A stretch of DNA of 64,000 nucleotides from the NCBI RefSeq assembly GCF_000153185.1, contig NZ_CH724149.1:260424-324423 (forward strand), written 5' to 3'. A program made the position numbers and the translations under genes. Within the stretch, counting starts at the first letter, position 1. The number at the start of each line of letters is the position of its first letter. The notes under the pieces are model-generated. The model searched no databases. It saw only the letters and a list, made by a program, of their open reading frames with translations, and had not been told where the DNA came from. The DNA comes from Reinekea blandensis MED297. Its GTDB lineage: Bacteria > Pseudomonadota > Gammaproteobacteria > Pseudomonadales > Natronospirillaceae. Shown one piece after another: positions 7,319 to 64,000 of this stretch.

Positions 7319-8734
7319 GTGGATCTATCAGAACAGTCTGAACGCATGCAGTCTTACTACAACCTGGCCCACGATCCATTTGGTGCGATCGTTGACGCGA
7401 TGGTGTTCAGTGGTGCCGGAGGAAGGTACGAGACAGCGGAAACTCTGCGACATCTGCTGGCCTATTCACAGCAGGACAGTCAGCTAGAAGGCCCGGCCGG
7501 GTCCGGGAAGCGAATGCTCGCGCAACAGGTCATCAAGATGCTTGATGAGTCTTGGCGTGTGGCCTGGGTCGATGCTGCCGATCTTGATTCACCGAAAGCT
7601 CTGGAAAAAGAAATCATCGGTCAGTTGGGGCTTGGTCTCAAAGTCGAAGACGATACAGCAACTCTCTTAAAGCGAATCAATGCCGTCATTGCGCAACGAT
7701 ATGCCGATGAGGAGTCGTTTTTGCTGGTCGTTCAGCGAGCCGATCAGGCGCGACCTGAAGTGGAACAACTTCTGGACGCACTGCGAGTGCAAGCAGAAGA
7801 TGCAGACCATCGAATCCGTCAACTTTGGTTGGTCGAAAACGCAGACGCTGTGAGCGACGAGGGCGATACCGACTGGTATCGACACCCGTTGGAGCCGTTT
7901 ACTGACGCTGACGCCGAGCAATACATTCGAGACCGGATGATTGCGTCGGGCTATGTGGATGATCTGCCCATTCCGTTTACGGATATTGCCCGTCTTAATC
8001 AACTGTCTGGCGGCATTCCCTTGCAACTCAACGACATGGTTCGTGATTACCTGATCTCATCGACCTTTCGTACTACAGAGAAAAAACAAGCGTTTCCTCT
8101 GACTCACGTGATTGCTGGTGTCGCCGCTCTGACTCTGGTAACCGTGGCGTTTTTGTATCAAACCGGTGAATCTGGCGATAACCAACCCGTCAGGCAGGCC
8201 GATTCAGGGTCGACTGAGACGGACCGTCCGCTTACGTCGGTTGAGCAGCGCTTGGCTGATGCGGTGGCGCAGGTGGAAGCCCGGCAAAGCGGCAGCGAAT
8301 CAGTGACCGCTGAAGTGGAAGCAACGGAAGCATCAACGGTCAGTTCGGATAGCACGGGCTCTGAATCAGAACCCTCAGAATCGGTTGCTTTGCCGTCATC
8401 GACTGAAGGAAGCCCAACAGCAGAAGAATCTCGTCCGACACAGAACGCCGAAGTGCCATCCCTGTTAGATCGGGGTGATGATGCCCAGTACACTGTTCAG
8501 CTGATTGGTGTGCGCGACCAAGCGCAGCTGGCCTCACTGCTTGCTGAGTTTAATAGCCCTCTGGATGTGGACATCGTGGAAACCACCTATCAGGGCGATC
8601 CGTGGTTTGTGCTGATATATGGGCAGTTTGATACTCGTGATGAAGCTCAGTCAGCGTTTGAAGCCTTGCCAGAAGGGCTTTTTTCCGGGGATCCCTGGAT
8701 TCGTTCATTCCAGTCACTTCGTAGCTCGCTCTAA
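7319..8734 (+). CDS. damX: DamX-like protein: AAA ATPase plus C-terminal SPOR domain
   Basis: An inner-membrane cell-division accessory protein of about 471 residues. The N-terminal part resembles the ExeA/GspA-type AAA domain (YYNLAHDPFG near residue 11, P-loop-like LEGPAGSGKRMLAQQ near 60). A single membrane helix lies near 260-280 (THVIAGVAALTLVTVAFLY), followed by a long Ser/Glu/Thr-rich periplasmic linker. The SPOR peptidoglycan-binding domain is at the end (YTVQLIGVRDQAQL...WFVLIYGQF...SFQSLRSSL). I choose the GTG at 7319 because TCTGGAG sits eight bases upstream. A TTG at 7250 lacks a ribosome site. An ATG at 7346 would still keep the YYNLAHDPFG motif. It follows aroB in the usual aroKB-damX order. 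Confidence 0.85.
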   Translation: MDLSEQSERMQSYYNLAHDPFGAIVDAMVFSGAGGRYETAETLRHLLAYSQQDSQLEGPAGSGKRMLAQQVIKMLDESWRVAWVDAADLDSPKALEKEIIGQLGLGLKVEDDTATLLKRINAVIAQRYADEESFLLVVQRADQARPEVEQLLDALRVQAEDADHRIRQLWLVENADAVSDEGDTDWYRHPLEPFTDADAEQYIRDRMIASGYVDDLPIPFTDIARLNQLSGGIPLQLNDMVRDYLISSTFRTTEKKQAFPLTHVIAGVAALTLVTVAFLYQTGESGDNQPVRQADSGSTETDRPLTSVEQRLADAVAQVEARQSGSESVTAEVEATEASTVSSDSTGSESEPSESVALPSSTEGSPTAEESRPTQNAEVPSLLDRGDDAQYTVQLIGVRDQAQLASLLAEFNSPLDVDIVETTYQGDPWFVLIYGQFDTRDEAQSAFEALPEGLFSGDPWIRSFQSLRSSL

Positions 8735-8963
8735 CCGTTTAATGTGTTGATGGTGCGGCGAGAAAACCATTCGGCGCATCCATGGCGGGTGATCCCCGTT
8801 TTTTGCGTGTTTGGACGGGCAATGCAATATTTAACCGGATATTATACCGTTATTAATTGTTAATTTGGCCATCAGGCATAGACTCTCTCCTCAACAAAGA
8901 TAAAGAACAGACGTTGGCCTCGCGACCGGCGAATGCCAACGACACTACTGAGAGAGCATTGAT

Positions 8964-11900
8964 ATGAGCACAGGGTTGTATAACCCCGGTGAGTTCCGGG
9001 ATAACTGTGGCTTTGGTCTGATTGCCCACATGGAAGGAAAGGCCAGCCACAACCTGCTTCTGACGGCGATCGAGTCGTTAACCTGCATGACCCACAGAGG
9101 CGGTATTGCCGCAGATGGTAAAACCGGTGATGGCTGCGGTTTATTGCTGCAGATGCCGACAGGCTTCTTTCAGAATGAAGCCCGCCAACATTTCAATGCT
9201 GACATCGGAGAGCATTTCGCGATTGGGATGATCTTTCTGAATGCCGATCCGGAAAAGGGTCGTGAAGGTCGTCAGGTCCTTGAAGCGACATTGGCTGATC
9301 AGGGACTGGACGTCATAGGCTGGCGTCCGGTACCGATTGATACGCAATACTGCGGACCGATGGCGCTCGATTGCCTGCCCGATATTCAGCAGGTCTTTGT
9401 CACAGCGTCGCCGGATGATGATTTGGCCGTCAAACTCTATACGGCTCGTCGAAAAGCGGAACAGGCGATGGCGCACGACGACGAATTTTATATCTGTTCG
9501 TTGTCCGAAAAGGTCGTGTCATATAAAGGATTGGTCATGCCCGTCGACCTTCCTAAGTTTTATAAAGACCTGGGTAATGAGGCGCTCGAAACCGGTATCT
9601 GTGTCTTCCACCAACGATTTTCCACGAACACCATGCCCAAGTGGCCTCTGGCTCAGCCGTTTCGGTTGCTTGCCCATAACGGTGAGATCAATACCATTGC
9701 CGGCAATCGTAATTGGGCGCGTGCGCGTGCCAGTAAATTTGCTAATGATCGCATCCCCCATCTGGAAGATTTACAGCCAGTGGTGAACACCACCGGTTCA
9801 GACTCTTCCAGTATGGATAACATGCTGGAGTTAATGTTGCTGGGCGGCATGGACATGTTCCGGGCTTGTCGGACCATGATTCCACCCGCCTGGCATAATG
9901 TCGAACACATGGATTCTGAACTGAAGGCTTTTTATGAGTTCAATTCCATGCACATGGAACCTTGGGATGGACCGGCCGGCATCGTTCTGACCGATGGGCG
10001 GTATGCCGTCTGTATGCTCGACCGGAACGGGCTGCGTCCCTCGCGTTGGGTTATTACCAAGAACGGTTACATTACGTTGGCCTCAGAGATTGGTACGTTT
10101 GACTATGCGCCGGAAGATGTTATTGCCAAAGGTCGCGTTGGTCCCGGTCGTATCGTGGCCGTGGATACCCAGACCGGTGAGTTCCTGGAAACCGAAACCA
10201 TTGATGGTCGCTTGAAAAAAGCGCATCCCTATAAAGACTGGCTCAAAGAGAATGCGGTGCGGTTGCGTTCTCGTTTGGAGCTGGCGGAAGAAGGTGACGG
10301 CTCAACCCTGAATGAAGGCCAGGTTGACGCTTATCAGAAGCTGTTTCAGGTCAGCTACGAGGAGCGTGATCAGGTGATCCGGCCGCTTGCTGAAACCGGG
10401 CAGGAGGCCGTGGGTTCCATGGGGGATGACACGCCCATGGCCGTTCTGTCCCATAAAATACGCCCCATTACTGACTACTTCCGTCAGCAGTTTGCGCAGG
10501 TCACCAATCCGCCGATTGACCCGTTGCGTGAATCCATTGTGATGTCGCTTGAAACCTGTTTAGGGCCGGAAGCGAACCTGTTTAATCCGGAACCTGAGCA
10601 TGCAACGCGATTGATTCTGGCTTCGCCGGTGCTCTCGCCGCTGAAGTTTCAGAGTATGTTGCACCAGGAAAAGCCTCAGTTCCGTCATCAGATACTGCAT
10701 TTGGGTTATCACGCCGATCAGGATCTGAAGTCCGCAATTGAAGCGCTGATTGATGAAGCGGAACGGGCAAGCCGTGATGGTGTGAAAATTTTGGTCTTGT
10801 CCGATCGGTTACTTGAACCCGGTCAGCAAGCCATACCGGCCGTCATGGCTACCGGGGCCGTGCATCACCGCTTAGTGAACAAAGGGTTGCGCTGCGATAC
10901 CAATATCGTGCTCGACAGCGGCGCCATTCGCGATCCGCATCAGTTCGCGGTGGCGATTGGTTTTGGTGCCACTGCCGTCTATCCGTATCTGGTTTACGAA
11001 GTGATCGACGATATGATCCGCACCGGAGAACTGGTTGGCGATCACCATCTGCTGCACAAAAATTATCGTAAAGGCATCAACAAAGGACTGTTGAAAATCA
11101 TGTCCAAGATGGGCATCTCGACCATTGCATCGTATCGTGGGGCGCAGTTGTTTGAAGCCGTTGGCCTGGCCGATGAAGTGGTCGATCTGTGCTTTACCGG
11201 AGTGATGAGCCGGATTCAGGGTGCCGGCTTCGAGCATATCGAAGCCGAAGTTCGAAAGTTGGCTAATGATGCCTGGAAACCCCGCAAAAAACTCGACCAG
11301 GGCGGTAAACTGAAGTTTGTTCATGGCGGCGAGTACCACACCTATAATCCTGACGTGGTCACCACCATTCAGAAGGCGGTACAGAATGGTGATCATGCGG
11401 CTTATCGCGATTTTGCGGCGTTAGTGAATGAGCGTACTCCTGCCACCATTCGAGACCTGTTCCGTTTGACCAGTGACCGTCCGGCCATTCCATTGGATGA
11501 CGTTGAGCCGGTTGAATCCATCTACCCACGATTCGATTCGGCCGCGATGTCATTAGGGGCGCTGTCACCCGAGGCACACGAAGCGCTCGCCGTGGCGATG
11601 AACGAACTGGGTGGTCGCTCCAACTCCGGAGAAGGTGGCGAAGATCCAAAACGTTACGGTACCAATCGTCGCTCCAAGATTAAACAGGTTGCGTCGGGTC
11701 GATTCGGCGTAACGCCAGCCTATCTGCGCAGCGCGGACGTGATTCAGATTAAAGTCGCGCAGGGTGCAAAACCCGGTGAAGGCGGGCAGTTACCCGGCGG
11801 AAAGGTGAACAAACTGATTGCTGAGTTGCGCTACTCGGTGCCAGGTGTGACGTTGATTTCACCGCCTCCGCATCATGACATTTATTCGATCGAAGATCTG

Positions 11901-54599: not shown

Positions 54600-57500
54600 T
54601 CAGGAGCGTTTAAAGGTGCGCTTGCCGAACAACAGCAGTGGCAGTAACAGCCATGGCAGACCCGCGCCACCACGACCACCGCTTGATTTGGCGTCGGGCA
54701 GTGGCGTTGAGTCGCTGCCGCCATCAACGGCGCTTTCACTGTCGCGCACGTCACCGGCAAAGTCGAGACGACTGCTGTTGCTGTTATTGTTAGCGCTGAT
54801 GACGTCGGCTTCCCCGCTGCCGTCAACATCAACCATTAAAATGGTGTCGGCGCCGTCGGTATCCATCACATCAATAACGGCTAGCTGTCCCTGACGCTGA
54901 CTCATGATTTCCAGGGCGCCACCGGGTCGCAGTACCGCCACGTCGTCCTGACCGTCGCCGTCGTAGTCACCGATGCTGAGGTCATTCACCGAGCCGGTGT
55001 CAGTCGACGTCAGCGTCGTTGTCTGTTCCTGCTGACTGATGCTCAGGGTTTCGAGTTTCGCAGGCTGGTCTTCTGTCCCTTCGTGCATCAGAACCAGTTC
55101 ACCGGCGGTACCGTCGCCGTCGAGATCGGCAAGCACCATCTGTGTGGTCAGATCGGTGTCGTCACCGAACTCGGCGGCGTCAAAGTCTTCAGCAGCAGGC
55201 GCTTCACCAATGCGCAGTAGATTGCGGTTTTGGTGACCGTTGTGACGATGGCCAAAACCTCGGTTCCAGTACAGCCGGTTACGGAAGCCCCGGTTCGCAA
55301 AGACAATGTCCGGATAGCCGTCCCAGTTGAAATCGTACAGCAAGACGCGTCGACTGTTGCGGGCCGGGAAAGTTTTGCCCAGCGTGAACTGGCCGGTGCC
55401 ATCGTTCAGGAACAGGGTGTTGTCGTCGGTGTTGTTGGCAAAGACCAGGTCGATGTCACCGTCGCGATCGATGTCGGCATAGGCCACCGCTCGGCTGTCG
55501 GCCTGGCCAAGCTGACCGATCAGTTCAAAGGTGCCGTCGCCGCGATTGCGATAGACCGTGTTGGCTTCGCCGTGTCCGTTGGCCAGCACCCAGTCCCGGT
55601 GGCCGTCGTTATTTAGGTCGACCACGGCCATGGCGTAGCTGTCCGAGGCGTCGGCCAGATGCGTATGCAGGACCGGGCGGAACAGCGAGTGCTTGAATCG
55701 GTACGCAGTGGAGGCTTCGGCCGGTCCATTAGCAAACAGGATTTCCGGCCAGCGACCGCCCTGAATGTCCGCAATGCCAATGGCCCGAACGGTACCCTGA
55801 CCGAAAGCCGGTACGCTGTATTGTGGGCTCGTCGGTGTACCGTTGGTAAAGGTCAGCGTCATCTGCGCCCGGTTGTTGTCGGCTTGAGTCTCAAAGCCGT
55901 TGTGGCTTATTTGGGTTTCGATGTCGACTGAACCGATCTCCTGTTGGCGAACATCAACACGCAGACTCTGCGCTTCGTCCTCGGTCAACGTCAGCAGGCA
56001 CACATTGTTGTGCGGCGTACAGCGTGGGTCTTCACTGGTCCATTCGCCGGCAAAGCGCAGCGTCAGTTGGGCGTCTGTCAGTGGCATTGGGCCGTGGTTG
56101 GTCGCGGTCACCGTCAGCGGTACCCAGGCGTTGGTGGCCCAGATGGTGCGATTGGCTGAAATGGCAACGGACAGGTCCGTTGCGGTTGGGTCGTTGAGCA
56201 CGGTCAGTGCCAGCGTTTGACCGGTGGTGGCCTGTCCGTCGGTCACCCGGACGTCAATGACTTGCTCACCGATCATGTTTTCATTCGGCAGCGCGGTTAA
56301 CACGCCATCGGCCGACAAAGAAAGCCATTCCGGAGCATTGGCGAGTTCAAAACTCAGCGTATCACTGTCGATGTCTTCAGCTTCGAGGCGTGCTTCCCAC
56401 GGACGATAAATCTGCGCAGTGGGCAAGCCCTGCGTGGTGATGACAGGCAGATCATTCACCGGGCTCACGGTCAACGTCAGCGACAAGGTGTTGCTGTCGG
56501 CCTGGCCGTCATTCACGGTTAAGTCGATGGTCAGCGTGCCGTTCCAGTTCGGATCGGGAATGATCTCGTTTCCGGCCACCTGATAATGCTCGCCCAGAGC
56601 GATATCGATGGTGAAGTCGGCACTGTCCGGGTCCACGATGTCGAGCATGTCCCGAACGACAAACAGACTGGTGTCTTCCGCAATCGTCTGAGCCGTCACC
56701 GCGTTGAGTTCGGGAGCATCGTTCACGGCGGTAACCGTCACCGGAACCAGCAGGGTGTTACTGAGTAAATCGCCATCAAAGATGCGCACCGGCACGGTCA
56801 GTTCGCCATTAAAGTTCTGAGCCGGCATCAGCGTGCTGCCGTTGACGGTATAGTGCTCGCCGGCGTCCATGACGACCGAGTGTTCGGTTGAGTCGATATC
56901 GCTGAACTGGAACTGACCGGGTGACAGTGTCAGTGCCGTATCTTCCGGTGTACTGAGGACAGCGTGGCCGGTCAGCACCGGTGGGTCGTTCACAGGGTTC
57001 ACCTGCACGGTGAGTATCTGTGATTCGCTGGTCAGTTCACCGTCGTTCACGGCAACGCCGACGGACAGAGTGCCCGTCCAGCTGTCGGCCGGGGTAATGG
57101 TCTGACCATCCACACTGTAGTTGGCACCCGGCTGTAGCTGAATGGTGAAGGTCTCTGAGTCCGGGTCTTGTAAGGTCATCATTGATGTCGTCACCGTTAA
57201 CGAGGCGTCTTCGTCGATGACCTGGTCAATCGTGTTGAGCAATACCGGCGGATCGTTGACCGGTGTTACGTTCACCGTCATTGGCTGCGGCGCGCTGCTC
57301 AGTTCGCCATCACTAACGGCGACCGACACCGACAGAGAACCATACCAGTTGCTGGCCGGTTGGATGGTTGTCCCTGTAACGTCGTAGTTTGCCCCCGGCA
57401 ACACCTGCAACTGGAACGAGGTGGAGTCCGGGTCATCAACCGTGACCATAGCTGTGGTTAAGGTCAGTGAGGTATCTTCCGGCATGGTTTGCGCAGCGGT

Positions 57501-59489
57501 ACTGATCAGGCTTGGGGCATCGTTCACCGCGGTAACTGTCACCGGAACCAGCAAAGCATTACTGAGTGACAGGCCATCGAAGATGCGCACTGGCACGGTC
57601 AGTTCACCATTAAAGTTCTGAGCGGGCATCAGCGTGTTGCCGTTGACGGAATATTGCTCACCCGCTTCGATGACGACGCTATGGCTGGAGGAGTCGATAT
57701 CACTGAACTGAAACTGACCCGGTGACAGTGTCAGTGCGGTATCTTCTGGTGTACTGAGCGGAGCGTGGCCGGTTAAGACCGGTGGGTCGTTCACCGGCAC
57801 CACCTGCACAGTCAACACCTTGGTTTGACTGCTCAGGCTGCCATCGCTGACGGCAACGCCAACGGACAGGGTGCCCGTCCAGCTTTCGGCAGGGGTAATG
57901 GTTCGCCCATTCACACGGTAGTTCGCGCCTGGCTGAACCTGAATAGTAAAGGTCTGAGAGTCCGGATCCTGAATGGTGAGCATCGACGCCGTGACTGTCA
58001 GGGCGGTGTCTTCTTCAATCATCTGTGCTTCAGTCGCCACTAACGCTGGTGCATCGTTGACCGGCGTCACGTTGACCGTAACGGATACGGATTGGCTGGA
58101 CAGCGCACCGTCGCTGACCACAACAGGCACCTGCAGCGTGCCGTTCCAGTTGGCACTCGGCGCCACCGTGGTTCCGGTGACCTGATAGTTAGCACCCGGT
58201 AACACCTGCAGTTCAAAGTTGCTGGAGTCCGGATCGCGAATGTCGAGCATCGCCAGCGTTAAGGTCAGTGCCGAGTCTTCGGCCATCGTTTGTGCCTGAG
58301 CCTCAACGATGACCGGCGCGTCGTTGACGGGGGTGACGCTAATCTGCGCGGTAAAAACGTTTGAGCTTTGTTCCGTATCCTGAACCGTAACCGGGACCGC
58401 CAGTGTGCCGGCAAAATCTGTGTCGGGGATGATGGTCGTGCCTTGAACGGTATAATGACTGCCAGTGCCAACCAGCAAGGTTAAGGCGTCGGGCTGTTCG
58501 TCGCTGACGATGAAGTCCGCCAGCGACAGGGTAATCTGACTGTCCTCCGAAACCGATACGGGCTGTTGACCTTCAATGACCGGAGCCTGGTTGTGCATCG
58601 TTGGCCAACCCAGGTCACGCATCATCGCCTTCGCGATGACCCCTTCCGGATTGTAGCCCCGGCGGGTAATCATCATGATCTGGTAAGGGTCAATGCTTTC
58701 GTGCAGGTGCATTCCCGTCAGTTGAGGCGCATGGTAGGTGCGGGAAAACAGTAAGAGGGCATCTTTGGTTCGGCCGAACGTCAGGTGTTCGGCGGCCGCA
58801 AACGAGTGCTCACCTTTGAAGGCCAGGTTGTCGTAGTCGTGGGAGGCCTGATCGATTTCTGCTGGCGTCATATCCGTCAGCATACGGTCCAACTTAGACG
58901 ATTTCAGATGACGCCAGTAAATGTCCGGAATGCCGTCGAGCGTTTCGCCTCTCATCAGATCACCCAGTGGAGCCAGGCCTAAGTGGTGACCCATCTCCTG
59001 GATGGTTTCGAGATACAGGCTGTACTCGCCGAACTCGTATTGCCCATCGCGGCCCAGATACCATTTCTGGCAATTGTTGTGAGTGATAATCTTGCTGTTA
59101 AATCGAATGTAGACGTCTGGTTTATTGGGTGACAGGTCGGTACCGGCTAATGCATTGGCCAGGGCAATGGGGTAATGGGTGTCCGCAATGGGTGCGTTCG
59201 GGAAGTTAATGACGGTTTCTGGTGGCTGCCAGTCAATGTGAGCGTTGTACGCGAAGCTGCAGTTTAACGACGGCGCTTGTACCGCTACTTCAATCGGCAC
59301 GTCCGAGCGCAGCCAATCGGCCCAGAACAGCGCCGCATCGTTCATGACCTCGCGCATTTCGGTGGTGTAGACGTCGTCGTAGGTCAACACGAAGGTGCTG
59401 CCCTTGCCCTCAACGACACTGTCGGCGGCTGCAATCTGAAACGTCGCGACCGCCAGCCCGGTGAATAGCCATGTACGCAGAATTTTCAT
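54600..59489 (-). CDS. Large secreted repeat protein with FG-GAP repeats and GlyGly-CTERM-like tail
   Basis: A 1629-residue protein. The signal is MKILRTWLFTGLAVATFQIAAA. An N-terminal domain of about 280 residues has a zinc-protease-like helix reading IQEMGHHLGLAPLGD near 162, where metzincins read HExxHxxGxxH. The first His is Gln and the third is Pro, so activity is doubtful. Eight cadherin-like or tandem-95 modules of about 88 residues follow, each ending in (T/N)VTPVNDxP. The first six full modules form an ABCABC pattern. An Ig-like and a CARDB-like domain come next, then FG-GAP/VCBS-type motifs (DLNNDGHRDWV, DIDRDGDIDLV, DFNWDGYPDIV, DYDGDGQDDVAV). The tail GGRGGAGLPWLLLPLLLFGKRTFKRS fits GlyGly-CTERM sorting. 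An upstream TTG at 59504 is less likely. Confidence 0.82.
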   Translation of the reverse strand: MKILRTWLFTGLAVATFQIAAADSVVEGKGSTFVLTYDDVYTTEMREVMNDAALFWADWLRSDVPIEVAVQAPSLNCSFAYNAHIDWQPPETVINFPNAPIADTHYPIALANALAGTDLSPNKPDVYIRFNSKIITHNNCQKWYLGRDGQYEFGEYSLYLETIQEMGHHLGLAPLGDLMRGETLDGIPDIYWRHLKSSKLDRMLTDMTPAEIDQASHDYDNLAFKGEHSFAAAEHLTFGRTKDALLLFSRTYHAPQLTGMHLHESIDPYQIMMITRRGYNPEGVIAKAMMRDLGWPTMHNQAPVIEGQQPVSVSEDSQITLSLADFIVSDEQPDALTLLVGTGSHYTVQGTTIIPDTDFAGTLAVPVTVQDTEQSSNVFTAQISVTPVNDAPVIVEAQAQTMAEDSALTLTLAMLDIRDPDSSNFELQVLPGANYQVTGTTVAPSANWNGTLQVPVVVSDGALSSQSVSVTVNVTPVNDAPALVATEAQMIEEDTALTVTASMLTIQDPDSQTFTIQVQPGANYRVNGRTITPAESWTGTLSVGVAVSDGSLSSQTKVLTVQVVPVNDPPVLTGHAPLSTPEDTALTLSPGQFQFSDIDSSSHSVVIEAGEQYSVNGNTLMPAQNFNGELTVPVRIFDGLSLSNALLVPVTVTAVNDAPSLISTAAQTMPEDTSLTLTTAMVTVDDPDSTSFQLQVLPGANYDVTGTTIQPASNWYGSLSVSVAVSDGELSSAPQPMTVNVTPVNDPPVLLNTIDQVIDEDASLTVTTSMMTLQDPDSETFTIQLQPGANYSVDGQTITPADSWTGTLSVGVAVNDGELTSESQILTVQVNPVNDPPVLTGHAVLSTPEDTALTLSPGQFQFSDIDSTEHSVVMDAGEHYTVNGSTLMPAQNFNGELTVPVRIFDGDLLSNTLLVPVTVTAVNDAPELNAVTAQTIAEDTSLFVVRDMLDIVDPDSADFTIDIALGEHYQVAGNEIIPDPNWNGTLTIDLTVNDGQADSNTLSLTLTVSPVNDLPVITTQGLPTAQIYRPWEARLEAEDIDSDTLSFELANAPEWLSLSADGVLTALPNENMIGEQVIDVRVTDGQATTGQTLALTVLNDPTATDLSVAISANRTIWATNAWVPLTVTATNHGPMPLTDAQLTLRFAGEWTSEDPRCTPHNNVCLLTLTEDEAQSLRVDVRQQEIGSVDIETQISHNGFETQADNNRAQMTLTFTNGTPTSPQYSVPAFGQGTVRAIGIADIQGGRWPEILFANGPAEASTAYRFKHSLFRPVLHTHLADASDSYAMAVVDLNNDGHRDWVLANGHGEANTVYRNRGDGTFELIGQLGQADSRAVAYADIDRDGDIDLVFANNTDDNTLFLNDGTGQFTLGKTFPARNSRRVLLYDFNWDGYPDIVFANRGFRNRLYWNRGFGHRHNGHQNRNLLRIGEAPAAEDFDAAEFGDDTDLTTQMVLADLDGDGTAGELVLMHEGTEDQPAKLETLSISQQEQTTTLTSTDTGSVNDLSIGDYDGDGQDDVAVLRPGGALEIMSQRQGQLAVIDVMDTDGADTILMVDVDGSGEADVISANNNSNSSRLDFAGDVRDSESAVDGGSDSTPLPDAKSSGGRGGAGLPWLLLPLLLFGKRTFKRS
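56700..58290 (-). repeat. Two-fold super-repeat (three modules each) inside the large secreted protein gene
   Basis: About 790 bases are repeated head to tail within the gene. The stretch near 57515-57795 closely matches 56725-57000 at the DNA level, 57780-58045 matches 56990-57255, and 58050-58310 matches 57260-57520 more loosely. Each unit encodes three cadherin-like modules in the same order. An internal duplication of a three-module block explains the pattern, and the DNA identity of the third modules suggests it is recent or homogenised. Confidence 0.8.
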
Positions 59490-59862
59490 GTGAATAACAA
59501 CCAATAATCAGACATAGGTCACAATACCAGTGTGACGTCGGGCTTAAATGAAAGGACGAAGTTAGCGGTAAAAGTGTGAACTGAACACTGTTAAATTGGC
59601 GTTATTTTTAGATATAAGTGTCAAAAATCACGTTTATAGCCAATTTCCTACAAAGATAGACGGAAATTTGTCACACATAATCGAGTCATTTTGAACAATA
59701 GAAAATCCCTGGAACCTGCCCGGAATGACCGCCCATTGTGCCGTAAGCACCGTAGGCTCCGAGCCGACAACCTCGATTTGAAAAATCTGAAAAACACAAG
59801 CAAATCAAGTATCTGGGTGGACTTGCTGAAGTAGCGCGTTATAATGCGCGGACTTTCGGTTA
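59490..59862 (+). promoter_or_regulatory. Intergenic region with stable-RNA-type promoter
   Basis: TATAAT lies at 59840-59845, with TGGACT (59818-59823) as a -35 at 16-base spacing. A GC-rich discriminator (GCGCGG) directly follows the -10 box, which is typical of stringently controlled tRNA and rRNA promoters. The first tRNA-like sequence begins 18 bases after the -10 box. The rest of the stretch is AT-rich and must hold the promoter of the minus-strand secreted protein gene. I see no gene in it. Confidence 0.7.
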
Positions 59863-59882
59863 GGGGCCTTTAGCTCAGTTGG
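59863..59882 (+). pseudogene. tRNA 5' fragment
   Basis: Twenty bases beginning GGGGCCTTTAGCTCAG are identical to the 5' end of the intact tRNA at 60072 including one upstream base. Thereafter the sequence departs completely (GTGGCTCC instead of TTAGAGC), so this copy lacks anticodon and T arms. It lies directly downstream of the promoter, which suggests that the first tRNA of an array has been interrupted. Confidence 0.75.
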
Positions 59883-60003
59883 GTGGCTCCACGATAGCGA
59901 AGCTACTGAAAGCAGGCTAACCCTGCTTTTGGAGTGGAACACGCCGAGGGCAGGAGCCCGAGGCCGGGCTGTTAGCGAGAACAGGACGTTCGAGCCTTAC
60001 AGC
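59883..60003 (+). other. Densely base-paired GC-rich insert within the first tRNA copy
   Basis: About 120 bases that can fold into successive hairpins. CTCCA (near 59887) pairs with TGGAG (near 59930), enclosing TAGC-GAA-GCTA and AAAGCAGG-CTAAC-CCTGCTTT. Then GCC-GA-GGGC-AGGA-GCCC-GA-GGC has a symmetric GA/GA internal loop, and CTGTT-AGCGAG-AACAG follows. It would be transcribed from the tRNA promoter. I do not recognise a known RNA family. It could be a structured RNA or a small mobile insert. Confidence 0.5.
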
Positions 60004-60010
60004 GAATCTA

Positions 60011-60070
60011 ACCAACTTTTAACCGGAGTTGGAGATTTAAAAGTGACGTTGTCACCGTTACGGTTTTATA
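60011..60070 (+). repeat. Array spacer repeat, copy A
   Basis: The segment starting ACCAACTTTTAACCGGAG and including GATTTAAAAGTGACG recurs at 60268 with few changes. It contains the hairpin CCAACT/AGTTGG. It precedes the intact tRNA, and the second copy precedes the decayed tRNA. Confidence 0.85.
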
Positions 60071-60071
60071 G

Positions 60072-60148
60072 GGGCCTTTAGCTCAGTTGGTTAGAGCACA
60101 CGACTCATAATCGTTAGGTCCACGGTTCAAGTCCGTGAAGGCCCACCA
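60072..60148 (+). tRNA. tRNA with CAU anticodon, most likely tRNA-Ile2 (lysidine-modified)
   Basis: A 77-base cloverleaf. The acceptor is GGGCCTT (60072-60078) with AAGGCCC, the D stem GCTC/GAGC, the anticodon loop CTCATAA with CAT at the anticodon, the T arm CACGG-TTCAAGT-CCGTG, and the encoded CCA ends at 60148. The anticodon arm CGACTCATAATCG is the same as in Escherichia coli ileX, the AUA-reading tRNA whose C34 is changed to lysidine by TilS, which favours Ile2 over elongator Met. It has one mismatch at the base of the anticodon stem (C27-U43). Transcribed from the promoter near 59840. Elongator tRNA-Met remains possible. Confidence 0.85.
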
Positions 60149-60194
60149 CCTATTTCCTCAGTTTGTTTTTTTGAATGAACTGAAACGAAAGTCC

Positions 60195-60225
60195 AGAAAC
60201 CCGCTTCGGCGGGTTTTTGCGTTTT
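60195..60225 (+). terminator. Intrinsic terminator after the tRNA
   Basis: ACCCGC pairs with GCGGGT around a TTCG tetraloop near 60198-60213. TTTTGCGTTTTT follows. Confidence 0.88.
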
Positions 60226-60267
60226 TGGGTAACGAGAAGGGCATTTTTGAGTGTTTCATAGAAGCCC

Positions 60268-60329
60268 ACCAACTTTGAACCGGAGTTGGAGATTTAAAAG
60301 TGACGTTGTCACAGTTATGGTTTCTTTAA
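60268..60329 (+). repeat. Array spacer repeat, copy B
   Basis: The second copy of the spacer found at 60011 begins with ACCAACTTTGAACCGGAG. The bases just before it (GAAGCCCACCA near 60261) resemble the 3' end of the tRNA (GAAGGCCCACCA), so this marks the end of another lost tRNA copy. Confidence 0.8.
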
Positions 60330-60412
60330 AGGCCTTCAGCTCAGTCGGTTGGAGCACATGACTCATAATCGTTAGGTCCACGTTTAAGTCCGTACGGTGC
60401 GACGGCCCACTA
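60330..60412 (+). pseudogene. Decayed tRNA copy (CAU anticodon retained)
   Basis: It aligns with the intact tRNA at 60072 through the D arm (CAGCTCAGTCGGTTGGAGC) and the anticodon arm (GACTCATAATCGTTAGGTC). The T arm is damaged (CACGTTTAAGTCC lacks a stem base and the TTCAA loop), and an extra eight bases separate it from GGCCCACTA. The terminal CCA has become CTA. It cannot fold into a normal cloverleaf. Confidence 0.8.
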
Positions 60413-60588
60413 CCTATTTCCGTTAAGTGGTTCGTTTACAGGCAAACACATGACACACATGAAGATCTTCGGGAGGCTCAGCCGTGATGCTGTTCGCTGG
60501 AAAGGTGTTGCGATGTCAGCTTCTAGCAGTTGTGATCGGCGATCAGGCGGATAAGCGTCATCGAAGATTGGCTGAATCTATTATCAGT
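60413..60588. other. Non-coding stretch after the tRNA pseudogene
   Basis: It starts with the TACCTATTTCC sequence that also follows the intact tRNA (60149), marking the end of the duplicated unit. Short frames on the plus strand (such as one from 60484) overlap the lipoprotein gene and show no recognisable protein. I see nothing further in it. Confidence 0.4.
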
Positions 60589-61530: not shown

Positions 61531-62709
61531 TTAGGTTGCATTAACAGCTTCCTGTCTACTTTTTTGAAAGCTTAGTATTGGTAATGCGAATAGACTTACG
61601 AAACCGATTGCCGCACAGAGTAGCCAAACCGCATCCCCATCAAGGTACTGATAGAAATAAAAACCAATGGGAGCACCTAAGAAGTTTCCGGTTGCAAATA
61701 AAGTTTGGTGCCATCCGACTACTTTACCGCGATGGTTTGTTGATGCTTTTACAAACTCGTTTAAAATAATAGGAAAAAATAACATCTCTCCAACTGTCCA
61801 AACAATTACTGAGAGAAAGGGGAAGGTATAATTACTGGACAAAGATATTGCCGCAAAACCAAAACATAGCGCACAGCTACCTAATAACATCAATCTTACT
61901 TGATTGAACCGAGCCGTGAATGCAATCAATGGCACTTCGATAAAAATAACCAGCAGGGTGTTAAGCAAAAAAATAAAAGATATGTCCTTCGAACTAAAAT
62001 TAAAGACCTCTTTGAGGTAGATGGCGAAAGTAGTTTTAAACTGCGAGAAGACAATGACATTCAATACCATAACCAGTGATAAAAAAATGAATGTAGAATT
62101 GAGGTTTTTCCATCCGATGGATGACTCGATTTCAGATGATAAAATCTGTCGAGTAGTTGTCACGAGTTTTGGTGAGAAAGATAGTAATAGTATTAAGGTA
62201 ATAACGTTCAAAAAAGCATCGAATAAAAATATGTATTTCACGTTTAAATCAAATACTGCGGCACCCGCCGCCGCTGAAATACCAATACTGATATTCATAA
62301 CAGCATTTCTGATGCCGAATACATAGGTTCTTTTTTCTTCAGATGTATTGTTGACCAATAGCATGGTAAACGCAGGCCTGAATGCGTGGTCAGAGAACCC
62401 AAAAGTCAACAGCAAAAAAGATAATAGATACAGGCTTTCAGAAAAGAAGATACCAACCAATGCGGAAATTGAAATTGTTAAACTGACGATAATTACCTGA
62501 AAAGGGGATGTTTTATCTGATAAGTAACCACCTAGGTAACCGCCGATGAATCCACCAAAACCATAAGCTGTCAAAATGTAGCCAATTACCCCGAGTGAAT
62601 GCCCCTCCTCATGTAAAAACAGAGACAAAAACATCGGTACAACAAAACCGATATAGTTTGTAAAGGTCGCAAACATGAGTACCGATAGGGTGCGGTTCAT
62701 CTTAATCAT
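61531..62709 (-). CDS. Major facilitator superfamily transporter
   Basis: A 392-residue inner-membrane protein with about 12 hydrophobic helices, starting TLSVLMFATFTNYIGFVVPMFLSLFL. The loop between helices 2 and 3 has YGFGGFIGGYLGGYLSDKTSPF, a variant of the MFS motif GxLaDrxGrr. Substrate is unknown. The gene starts 16 bases after the YcaO stop with AAGGA upstream, so the two form an operon. In this context an exporter for a modified peptide is the natural guess, as RiPP loci often carry MFS or ABC exporters. The DNA is AT-rich relative to the left part of the window. Confidence 0.85.
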   Translation of the reverse strand: MIKMNRTLSVLMFATFTNYIGFVVPMFLSLFLHEEGHSLGVIGYILTAYGFGGFIGGYLGGYLSDKTSPFQVIIVSLTISISALVGIFFSESLYLLSFLLLTFGFSDHAFRPAFTMLLVNNTSEEKRTYVFGIRNAVMNISIGISAAAGAAVFDLNVKYIFLFDAFLNVITLILLLSFSPKLVTTTRQILSSEIESSIGWKNLNSTFIFLSLVMVLNVIVFSQFKTTFAIYLKEVFNFSSKDISFIFLLNTLLVIFIEVPLIAFTARFNQVRLMLLGSCALCFGFAAISLSSNYTFPFLSVIVWTVGEMLFFPIILNEFVKASTNHRGKVVGWHQTLFATGNFLGAPIGFYFYQYLDGDAVWLLCAAIGFVSLFALPILSFQKSRQEAVNAT

Positions 62710-62725
62710 TATTGAAAATCCTTAT

Positions 62726-63748
62726 TTACCCTATCGGGTAACACATATTCCTATGAGTTAAATGCCCTAAAAGGTCGGGGTTGACCCTGATATCTCTTTC
62801 GTGTTCGTACTGAAGGGGGATTAAGTGAGGCATGACCACTTCGCAATAAACAAGGTCGTTATTTGTCTTTTCAGTGAACATATAAGGACTGTACTTTTCG
62901 AAGACACTCTTAGTTATGGAAAGCGGGGTTGAACTTAATGAAGTGTTAATCTTCCTTTGCCATTGGGAAGTTCCTTTGCCCGACAAATAGTAAAGGGACG
63001 CATTGTTCACCTTTTTATCAAAGGCTAGATAGGCCTCAAGTGTTTGAAGGCATTCGGTATAAGCTCGAATGCAAGCATCAGAGTCACTCCCAAAAGAGAG
63101 TCCTACCGTCATCGCTCCTTTACTAAACCTACGATCAGACCGATTTATCATTACGCAAATAGTGCATGATTTATAATCCCTTATTTCATAGAAATCTAGT
63201 CTCCATCCTGACTCGATAGCGTGTTCGATTTCATCGCTTGAAAAGCTTTTCTCTAGAATATTGGATTCGAAAAGCCAAAAAATGTTGAATAAATGCCTTT
63301 CTATTAGCTCTTCTAAAGCTGAGTTAATAGCAAGTTCTTCTGTCTCATGAACTGCGGAACCATTTGATGTTTGAGTGAAATAGTTTGAGTAACATGCTGA
63401 GTTGATAGGGCGATGGATAAAGATTCGCTGATGATTGCTTAATGAATAGTAAGATTTCCACTCAACTTCCCTGTCATCTATAGATTCAGATATAGGAAGC
63501 ACTTGTTCTTCAGGAGATAGCATAGGTTTATCCGCGCAAAAAGCTGAAGTCAAGTCTGGAGTTTGGTTCCACAAACAATAGCGCTCAAGTATTTCCCCAT
63601 ATGCGGTTATAGTTCGCATTTCAATTGAGCTTCCTCTCCCCATTGATGTGTATCGAAGGTTTTTATCATGAACAGCAATAATTTTTGGAAGGTCACTGCA
63701 AAATGGGTTATCTAACTCAATGAGGTAGTAATCAAGTTCGTGAATCAT
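62726..63748 (-). CDS. YcaO-domain protein, probable RiPP-modifying ATP-dependent enzyme
   Basis: A 340-residue protein. The YcaO fold is shown by GRGSSIEMRTITAYGEILERYCL near residues 38-60, SNGSAVHETEELAINSALEELIERH near 127-151 (both carry the conserved Glu clusters that bind Mg-ATP), and SFGSDSDACIRAYTECLQTLEAYLAF near 219-244. YcaO enzymes activate a peptide amide with ATP to make azolines, thioamides or amidines. The C-terminus RNMCYPIG lacks the PxPxP ending of azoline-forming cyclodehydratases. No ThiF/Ocin-ThiF, TfuA or dehydrogenase gene is inside the window. The start ATG has no clear ribosome site. Upstream on the same strand is the Cys/Ser repeat frame. Confidence 0.88.
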   Translation of the reverse strand: MIHELDYYLIELDNPFCSDLPKIIAVHDKNLRYTSMGRGSSIEMRTITAYGEILERYCLWNQTPDLTSAFCADKPMLSPEEQVLPISESIDDREVEWKSYYSLSNHQRIFIHRPINSACYSNYFTQTSNGSAVHETEELAINSALEELIERHLFNIFWLFESNILEKSFSSDEIEHAIESGWRLDFYEIRDYKSCTICVMINRSDRRFSKGAMTVGLSFGSDSDACIRAYTECLQTLEAYLAFDKKVNNASLYYLSGKGTSQWQRKINTSLSSTPLSITKSVFEKYSPYMFTEKTNNDLVYCEVVMPHLIPLQYEHERDIRVNPDLLGHLTHRNMCYPIG

Positions 63749-63920: not shown

Positions 63921-64000
63921 TTACAATGCGATGCTGCACTTGTCAGCAATACTGCATTTATCAGCGATACTGCACTTATCAGCAATACTGCACTTATCAG
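63921..64000 (-). CDS. C-terminal end of a hexapeptide-repeat peptide, candidate RiPP precursor (runs off the right edge)
   Basis: Read on the minus strand, the frame ending in TAA at 63921 encodes four tandem copies of Asp-Lys-Cys-Ser-Ile-Ala followed by a final Leu, and continues past the window edge. The 18-base units, from the C-terminal one inward, read GAC AAG TGC AGC ATC GCA, then GAT AAA TGC AGT ATT GCT, then GAT AAG TGC AGT ATC GCT, then GAT AAG TGC AGT ATT GCT. All differences are synonymous, which is strong evidence for coding and for selection on the peptide. The neighbouring YcaO enzyme acts on Cys or Ser in other systems, so these repeats look like multiple core peptides. The leader, the number of repeats and the start codon lie outside the window. 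Confidence 0.8.
   Translation of the reverse strand, partial: DKCSIADKCSIADKCSIADKCSIAL

What the first reader, a model, noticed from the sequence alone, without database searches (positions are those of the whole stretch)
63921..64000. Tandem hexapeptide-repeat frame (Asp-Lys-Cys-Ser-Ile-Ala) beside a YcaO enzyme: candidate multi-core RiPP precursor
Seen: four 18-base units on the minus strand in one frame, identical at the amino-acid level, with differences only at third codon positions (GAC/GAT, AAG/AAA, AGC/AGT, ATC/ATT, GCA/GCT), ending Leu-stop, then a hairpin. Known: YcaO enzymes modify backbone amides next to Cys, Ser or Thr in RiPP precursors, and multi-core precursors exist in cyanobactins and thiovarsolins. 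Inferred: each hexapeptide is a core that is heterocyclised, thioamidated or otherwise modified at Cys/Ser, giving either many small products or a long poly-modified chain. I know of no described family with this repeat.
Basis: partly seen in the sequence, partly recalled or inferred. Interest (0 to 1): 0.95.

Follow-up and report, generated by a model that had tools for sequence, protein, structure and literature searches.

The report
Tandem Cys-Ser peptide beside YcaO enzyme
A bacterial gene fragment of four identical six-amino-acid units (Asp-Lys-Cys-Ser-Ile-Ala) lies just upstream of genes for a YcaO enzyme and a transporter, and a bacterium of another order carries the same two genes below a two-unit version of the motif, so the repeat peptide is likely the substrate that the enzyme would turn into a small modified natural product.

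Summary
In detail: window 63921-63998 (-) encodes four DKCSIA units, then Leu-stop, and all five variable unit positions are silent third positions. The array is cut by a 365-base run of N that begins right after the window, so start, leader and unit number are unknown.

The new evidence is comparative. The YcaO has five relatives in the protein search; one could be read in context, G978, which matches the record named Candidatus Celerinatantimonas neptuna. There YcaO (51% identical) and the MFS transporter (54%) keep their order. Upstream on the same strand, before a hairpin as in the window, a frame ends MADKCCKISDRCSVSAK-stop; such a D[KR]C[SC] pair arose in 0 of 3000 shuffles. Both loci look horizontally acquired.

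Best reading: RiPP precursor of a YcaO without a seen partner protein, likely heterocyclised at Cys/Ser and exported by the MFS protein. Chemistry, leader and function are inferred. Against: only two readable loci; in G978 the only canonical in-frame start is the Met right before the first unit; no protease or partner found. New variant of a known kind.

The parts
63921..63998 (-). Four DKCSIA units (63998-63927), then Leu (TTG) and stop (TAA, 63923-63921); 3' end of the candidate precursor gene, cut by the window end and the N run behind it
   Evidence: unique in the genome
63878..63899 (-). Hairpin between the array and YcaO (8-base perfect arms, 6 bases between); terminator-like only weakly
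   Evidence: a hairpin also separates motif peptide and YcaO in G978 (L021:10599-10629)
62726..63748 (-). YcaO protein, 340 aa, no additional domain found
   Evidence: PF02624 E 4.1e-20, 72.8 bits against cut-off 25.7; below cut-off of TIGR03604, TIGR03266 and TIGR00702; alignment with E. coli YcaO
61531..62709 (-). MFS transporter, 392 aa, predicted exporter
   Evidence: PF07690 E 1.7e-35; 54% identical to the MFS protein in the same place in G978

Best explanation
The minus-strand frame ending at window 63921 is likely the 3' end of a tandem-core RiPP precursor gene whose Asp-Lys-Cys-Ser-Ile-Ala units would be heterocyclised at Cys (and perhaps Ser) by the adjacent YcaO enzyme and then likely exported by the MFS transporter. 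Shown: the repeat, its silent-only variation, the gene order, the YcaO and MFS family matches, and a related two-unit Cys motif at the same place in a second genome. Inferred: that translation starts inside the N run, that YcaO acts on this peptide without an E1-like docking partner, that the product is an azoline-bearing chain or is cut into small units by a host protease, and that the MFS protein exports it.
For: Silent-only variation among units. Same gene order motif peptide - hairpin - YcaO - MFS in G978, with YcaO 51% and MFS 54% identical. The peptide ends align: ADKCSIAL-stop and SDRCSVSAK-stop. D[KR]C[SC] pair: 0 of 3000 shuffles of the 987-base G978 region, single motif 50 of 3000 (the motif was chosen after seeing both sequences). 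YcaO keeps E52, E55, R56, E147, E150, R151, R228, E232 and Q235 when aligned with E. coli YcaO (that these belong to the ATP site is recalled). Of 6 PDB matches at E <= 0.001 for the predicted fold, 5 are YcaO-type structures: chain D of the McbBCD microcin B17 synthetase first, three of an archaeal YcaO, one TruD.
Against: Start and leader are not visible. In G978 no canonical start lies in frame upstream of MADKCC, and an ATG-led frame just upstream ends in another frame. Only two loci could be read. The array is not conserved: two imperfect units in G978. No protease, dehydrogenase or partner gene was seen in the two clusters. The fold model is poor (mean pLDDT 51.6) and its sixth match is an unrelated RNA-binding domain. 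The MFS and YcaO pair alone does not prove what the substrate is.
Confidence: 0.6

Rival explanations
1. The repeat is the YcaO substrate, but the enzyme does other chemistry: backbone thioamidation or an amidine, as YcaO enzymes without an E1-like partner can do.
For: No E1-like partner model (TIGR03882) over cut-off in 0 of 2 genomes. YcaO can act alone in bottromycin biosynthesis, and YcaO-TfuA pairs thioamidate (passages of PMC6511847). The second to fifth PDB matches include an archaeal YcaO three times.
Against: Cys followed by Ser (or Cys-Cys) at the conserved spot suits azoline formation. The first PDB match is a microcin B17 synthetase chain. No TfuA gene was recognised among the neighbours that were scanned, though TfuA was not sought genome-wide. 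TIGR03882 rang over cut-off in none of 14 control genomes and gave one weak hit in the own genome (22.7 bits against 36.9), so the absence weighs little.
Confidence: 0.2
2. The peptide is a small Cys-rich, unmodified protein (for instance a metal-binding peptide) whose closeness to YcaO and MFS is not a substrate link.
For: No product or enzyme test exists. In G978 the genes lie beside type B L31 and L36 genes, and the whole stretch is absent from the sister genome, so the neighbours may be a mixed cargo.
Against: The same motif precedes YcaO in two genomes whose YcaO proteins are only 51% identical, in the same order and strand.
Confidence: 0.1
3. The coding strand is the plus strand (ILHLSA frame) or the array is not coding at all.
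For: An 18-base unit keeps several frames open; the + frame ILHLSA begins at an ATG and has one non-silent difference only.
Against: Only the DKCSIA frame is fully silent; its motif recurs on that strand in G978; the direction matches YcaO and MFS.
Confidence: 0.04

Closest known systems
Thiovarsolin-type clusters (varA with YcaO varY and TfuA varT; PMC6511847, passages seen)
   Same: YcaO with a precursor of imperfect tandem repeats; the repeat number varies between relatives, from none to five; the figure legend lists MFS genes in these clusters
   Different: The product arises from an APR tripeptide and is a thioamide made by a YcaO-TfuA pair; here the unit is DKCSIA and no TfuA was recognised among the scanned neighbours
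Heterocycloanthracin (PMC2674419 abstract; passage of PMC4603692)
   Same: Putative thiazole peptide with repeated Cys units; Cys-Ser repeats are reported for most precursors located in PMC4603692
   Different: Unit Cys-Xaa-Xaa; precursor encoded far from its maturation operon; here the unit is six residues and lies next to YcaO
Microcin B17 synthetase McbBCD
   Same: First PDB match of the predicted YcaO fold (6gos_D); Cys-Ser pairs in the core become fused azoles (recalled)
   Different: Needs partner and dehydrogenase subunits (recalled), none seen here; single Gly-rich core (recalled)
Bottromycin-type YcaO without partner protein
   Same: YcaO acting without an E1-like partner (passages)
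   Different: Other core, other chemistry (recalled); no tandem Cys units

Membership tests
YcaO superfamily | PF02624 over the curated cut-off | tested here: met
   72.8 bits against 25.7; the G978 homologue 53.1 bits
YcaO superfamily | Conserved Glu/Arg/Gln residues of the nucleotide site | tested here: met
   E52, E55, R56, E147, E150, R151, R228, E232, Q235 shared by six family members and E. coli YcaO; their role is recalled
SagD-type azole cyclodehydratase (TIGR03604) | Score over the curated cut-off | tested here: not met
   43.1 and 33.4 bits against 219.25
SagD-type azole cyclodehydratase (TIGR03604) | E1-like / ocin-ThiF partner in the genome | tested here: inconclusive
   TIGR03882 over cut-off in 0 of 2 genomes; one weak hit in the own genome; no control genome of 14 over cut-off
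Thiovarsolin-type YcaO-TfuA RiPP | TfuA gene beside YcaO | tested here: inconclusive
   Pfam scans of five proteins near the window cluster and four near the G978 cluster show none; not sought genome-wide
Multi-core RiPP precursor | Tandem core units in one reading frame | tested here: met
   Four DKCSIA units with silent-only variation; two imperfect units in G978
Multi-core RiPP precursor | Start codon and leader (or follower) region | tested here: inconclusive
   Hidden by 365 N here; in G978 only the Met of MADKCC is a canonical start in frame
Multi-core RiPP precursor | Modified product detected | not testable with these tools
   Needs mass spectrometry

The most novel reading that the evidence does not exclude
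A mobile three-gene cassette (Cys motif peptide, lone YcaO, MFS exporter) makes an exported chain of Cys-Ser azolines that binds metal, perhaps zinc. In G978 it lies, within the same 3.9-kb stretch that the sister genome lacks, next to genes for type B ribosomal proteins L31 and L36 behind a Zur-box-like site, the classic zinc-starvation pair.
Probability: 0.12. Interest if true: 0.82.

Novelty: new variant of a known kind. Interest (0 to 1): 0.6.

Why it matters
If the peptide is the YcaO substrate, this is a very small family (six proteins, the window's own included) that joins a lone YcaO to a tandem six-residue Cys-Ser core. So small a system could show how a YcaO picks Cys residues without an E1-like docking partner and how one enzyme works along many cores; the unit number (two imperfect units against at least four) is a natural series for that test.

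Tried and rejected
More relatives. Two scans of genome contigs gave 114 and 93 pattern matches, none confirmed; viral contigs 27, none confirmed; plasmids, tblastn with P0002, none. The genome search: 1 of 57 relatives, the own genome; 2 of 390 in the own order, the own and one weak; 4 of 369 in the class, the own and three with weak hits; 0 of 63 in the order of G465; 5 of 394 in the order of G530, one strong and four weak; 1 of 12 in the family of G978. Weak hits (E 3.1e-7 to 5.7e-4) were left out of the family; I read one, L005, whose next gene looks TfuA-like by eye, not tested.

Repeat elsewhere: one doubtful protein, P0006, E 7.8e-3; no second array in the genome.

Zinc control of the cassette itself: no Zur-box-like match in the window or in L002. 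The pattern used is recalled. In L021 it found one site, with 1 mismatch, before the L31 gene; at up to 3 mismatches 54 of 200 shuffles had at least one match. A scan for the 18-base motif given in PMC4219657 found nothing in the stretches scanned of L021, L002 and the window, not even the L31 site, so it is uninformative.

Structure: poor model, so its PDB ranking is a lead only; the sequence profile found no PDB chain at E <= 1.

Papers: no paper; 30 of 215 listed; 15 of 433; 15 of 16; 15 of 51; 12 of 102. No listed title or abstract start names a DKCSIA-type YcaO substrate. Passages were seen of PMC6511847, PMC4603692 and PMC4219657 and the abstract and outline of PMC2674419; the other papers were seen as listings only.

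Full report
Observation. The minus-strand frame at 63998-63921 reads DKCSIA four times, then Leu-stop. Five of 18 unit positions vary, all silent third positions. With the same number and kind of changes placed at random, all are silent in this frame with P = 0.00015 and in at least one of six frames with P = 0.004. The opposite-strand frame ILHLSA comes close (one non-silent difference), so this pattern alone does not fix the strand beyond doubt. The exact unit is found nowhere else in the 4.5 Mb genome.

The edge. Window base 64000 is G000:C7:324423, and the next 365 bases are N. Whether this is an assembly gap or a withheld stretch I cannot say. Beyond it, in the frame implied by 365 bases, 41 codons are open without ATG, GTG or TTG. 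Start, leader and number of units therefore lie in the N run.

Neighbours. YcaO (62726-63748) and an MFS transporter (61531-62709) follow on the same strand. YcaO scores over the Pfam cut-off but far below the NCBIfam cut-offs. Aligned with E. coli YcaO it keeps E52, E55, R56, E147, E150, R151, R228, E232 and Q235; their place in the ATP site is recalled. The predicted fold is poor (mean pLDDT 51.6), yet 5 of its 6 PDB matches at E <= 0.001 are YcaO-type structures: a chain of the McbBCD complex first, an archaeal YcaO three times, and TruD; the sixth is an unrelated RNA-binding domain. The E1-like partner model TIGR03882 is over its cut-off in 0 of 2 genomes, with one weak hit in the own genome; since no control genome of 14 passed the cut-off either, this absence weighs little.

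Relatives. phmmer over 5.8 billion proteins gave four relatives besides the query; the alignment added one. This search sees only proteins that share short exact words. The six share 44-79% identity. Whole-genome draws gave one in context: G978:C1:2723505-2724539.

The comparison that matters. In G978 (L021) YcaO at 9503-10534 and MFS at 8263-9480 keep the order; the MFS proteins are 54% identical. Upstream of YcaO, on the same strand, one frame reads NKIKVNESKTRTLISSISMADKCCKISDRCSVSAK-stop, ending at 10664, 129 bases before the YcaO start. A pair of D[KR]C[SC] motifs one to six residues apart occurred in 0 of 3000 dinucleotide shuffles of that 987-base region, a single motif in 50 of 3000; the motif was chosen after seeing both sequences. 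The end SDRCSVSAK-stop lines up with ADKCSIAL-stop. A hairpin with perfect 13-base arms separates it from YcaO, as one with 8-base arms does in the window. The weak point: the only canonical start in that frame is the Met of MADKCC at 10717; an ATG-led frame just upstream ends in another frame. I leave this unresolved.

Horizontal transfer. YcaO and MFS have 39.5% and 38.0% G+C against 52.4% for the window and 53.8% for the next gene upstream, and they lie beyond a tRNA-Met with partial copies. In the sister genome G1001 (same genus as G978; no YcaO relative) ffh lies directly beside the decarboxylase gene that G978 has too. In G978 3.9 kb lie between them: type B L36, type B L31, MFS, YcaO and the motif peptide. 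Type B L31 was sought in six genomes: G978 (in this stretch only) and G965 (with other flanks in the 13 kb read) are over the cut-off; the other four, G1001 among them, are not. A Zur-box-like site precedes the L31 gene (L021:8147-8163; pattern recalled). That L31p and L36p belong to the Zur regulon of E. coli is in a passage of PMC4219657. No such site was found before the motif peptide or in the window and L002, so a zinc role for the cassette is an idea only.

Mechanism, with status. Shown: sequence, gene order, and the motif in two genomes. Inferred: translation from a start in the N run; recognition by YcaO without a docking partner; ATP-driven cyclisation of Cys, perhaps also Ser, in each unit; cleavage by a host protease; export by the MFS protein.

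Known kinds. Multi-core precursors with YcaO exist (thiovarsolins, passages), and so do repeated Cys units, Cys-Ser among them (heterocycloanthracin). A six-residue Cys-Ser unit beside a lone YcaO was not named in the listings of the searches made, which cover open-licence papers only and were mostly cut lists. I call it a new variant of a known kind.

Noticed in passing
window 59864-60421: tRNA-Met (60072-60148) with partial copies at 60331-60382 (92%) and 59864-59882 (19 bases, identical), inside an 81% direct repeat (59973-60157 and 60230-60421); may mark an insertion site.
   Followed up: partly
L021:7650-8163 (G978): Type B L36 and type B L31 genes behind a Zur-box-like site, within the 3.9-kb stretch absent from sister genome G1001.
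   Followed up: partly
L021:11024-11057 (G978): Near-perfect 34-base palindrome (20-base overlapping arms, 95%) about 300 bases upstream of the motif peptide; role unknown.
   Followed up: no
window 54600-59504: Long minus-strand frame of 1634 aa with internal repeats, by eye like a surface protein with cadherin-like repeats; not searched.
   Followed up: no
P0006 (130 aa, 9.9-kb contig, source ena): Its N-terminal part reads ADKCSIADKCTIADKCAN; E 7.8e-3 to the repeat query, so perhaps chance; its contig could not be read.
   Followed up: no
L005 (G420:C10): A weak YcaO hit whose next gene looks TfuA-like by eye, behind a transporter-like gene; a separate YcaO cluster.
   Followed up: no
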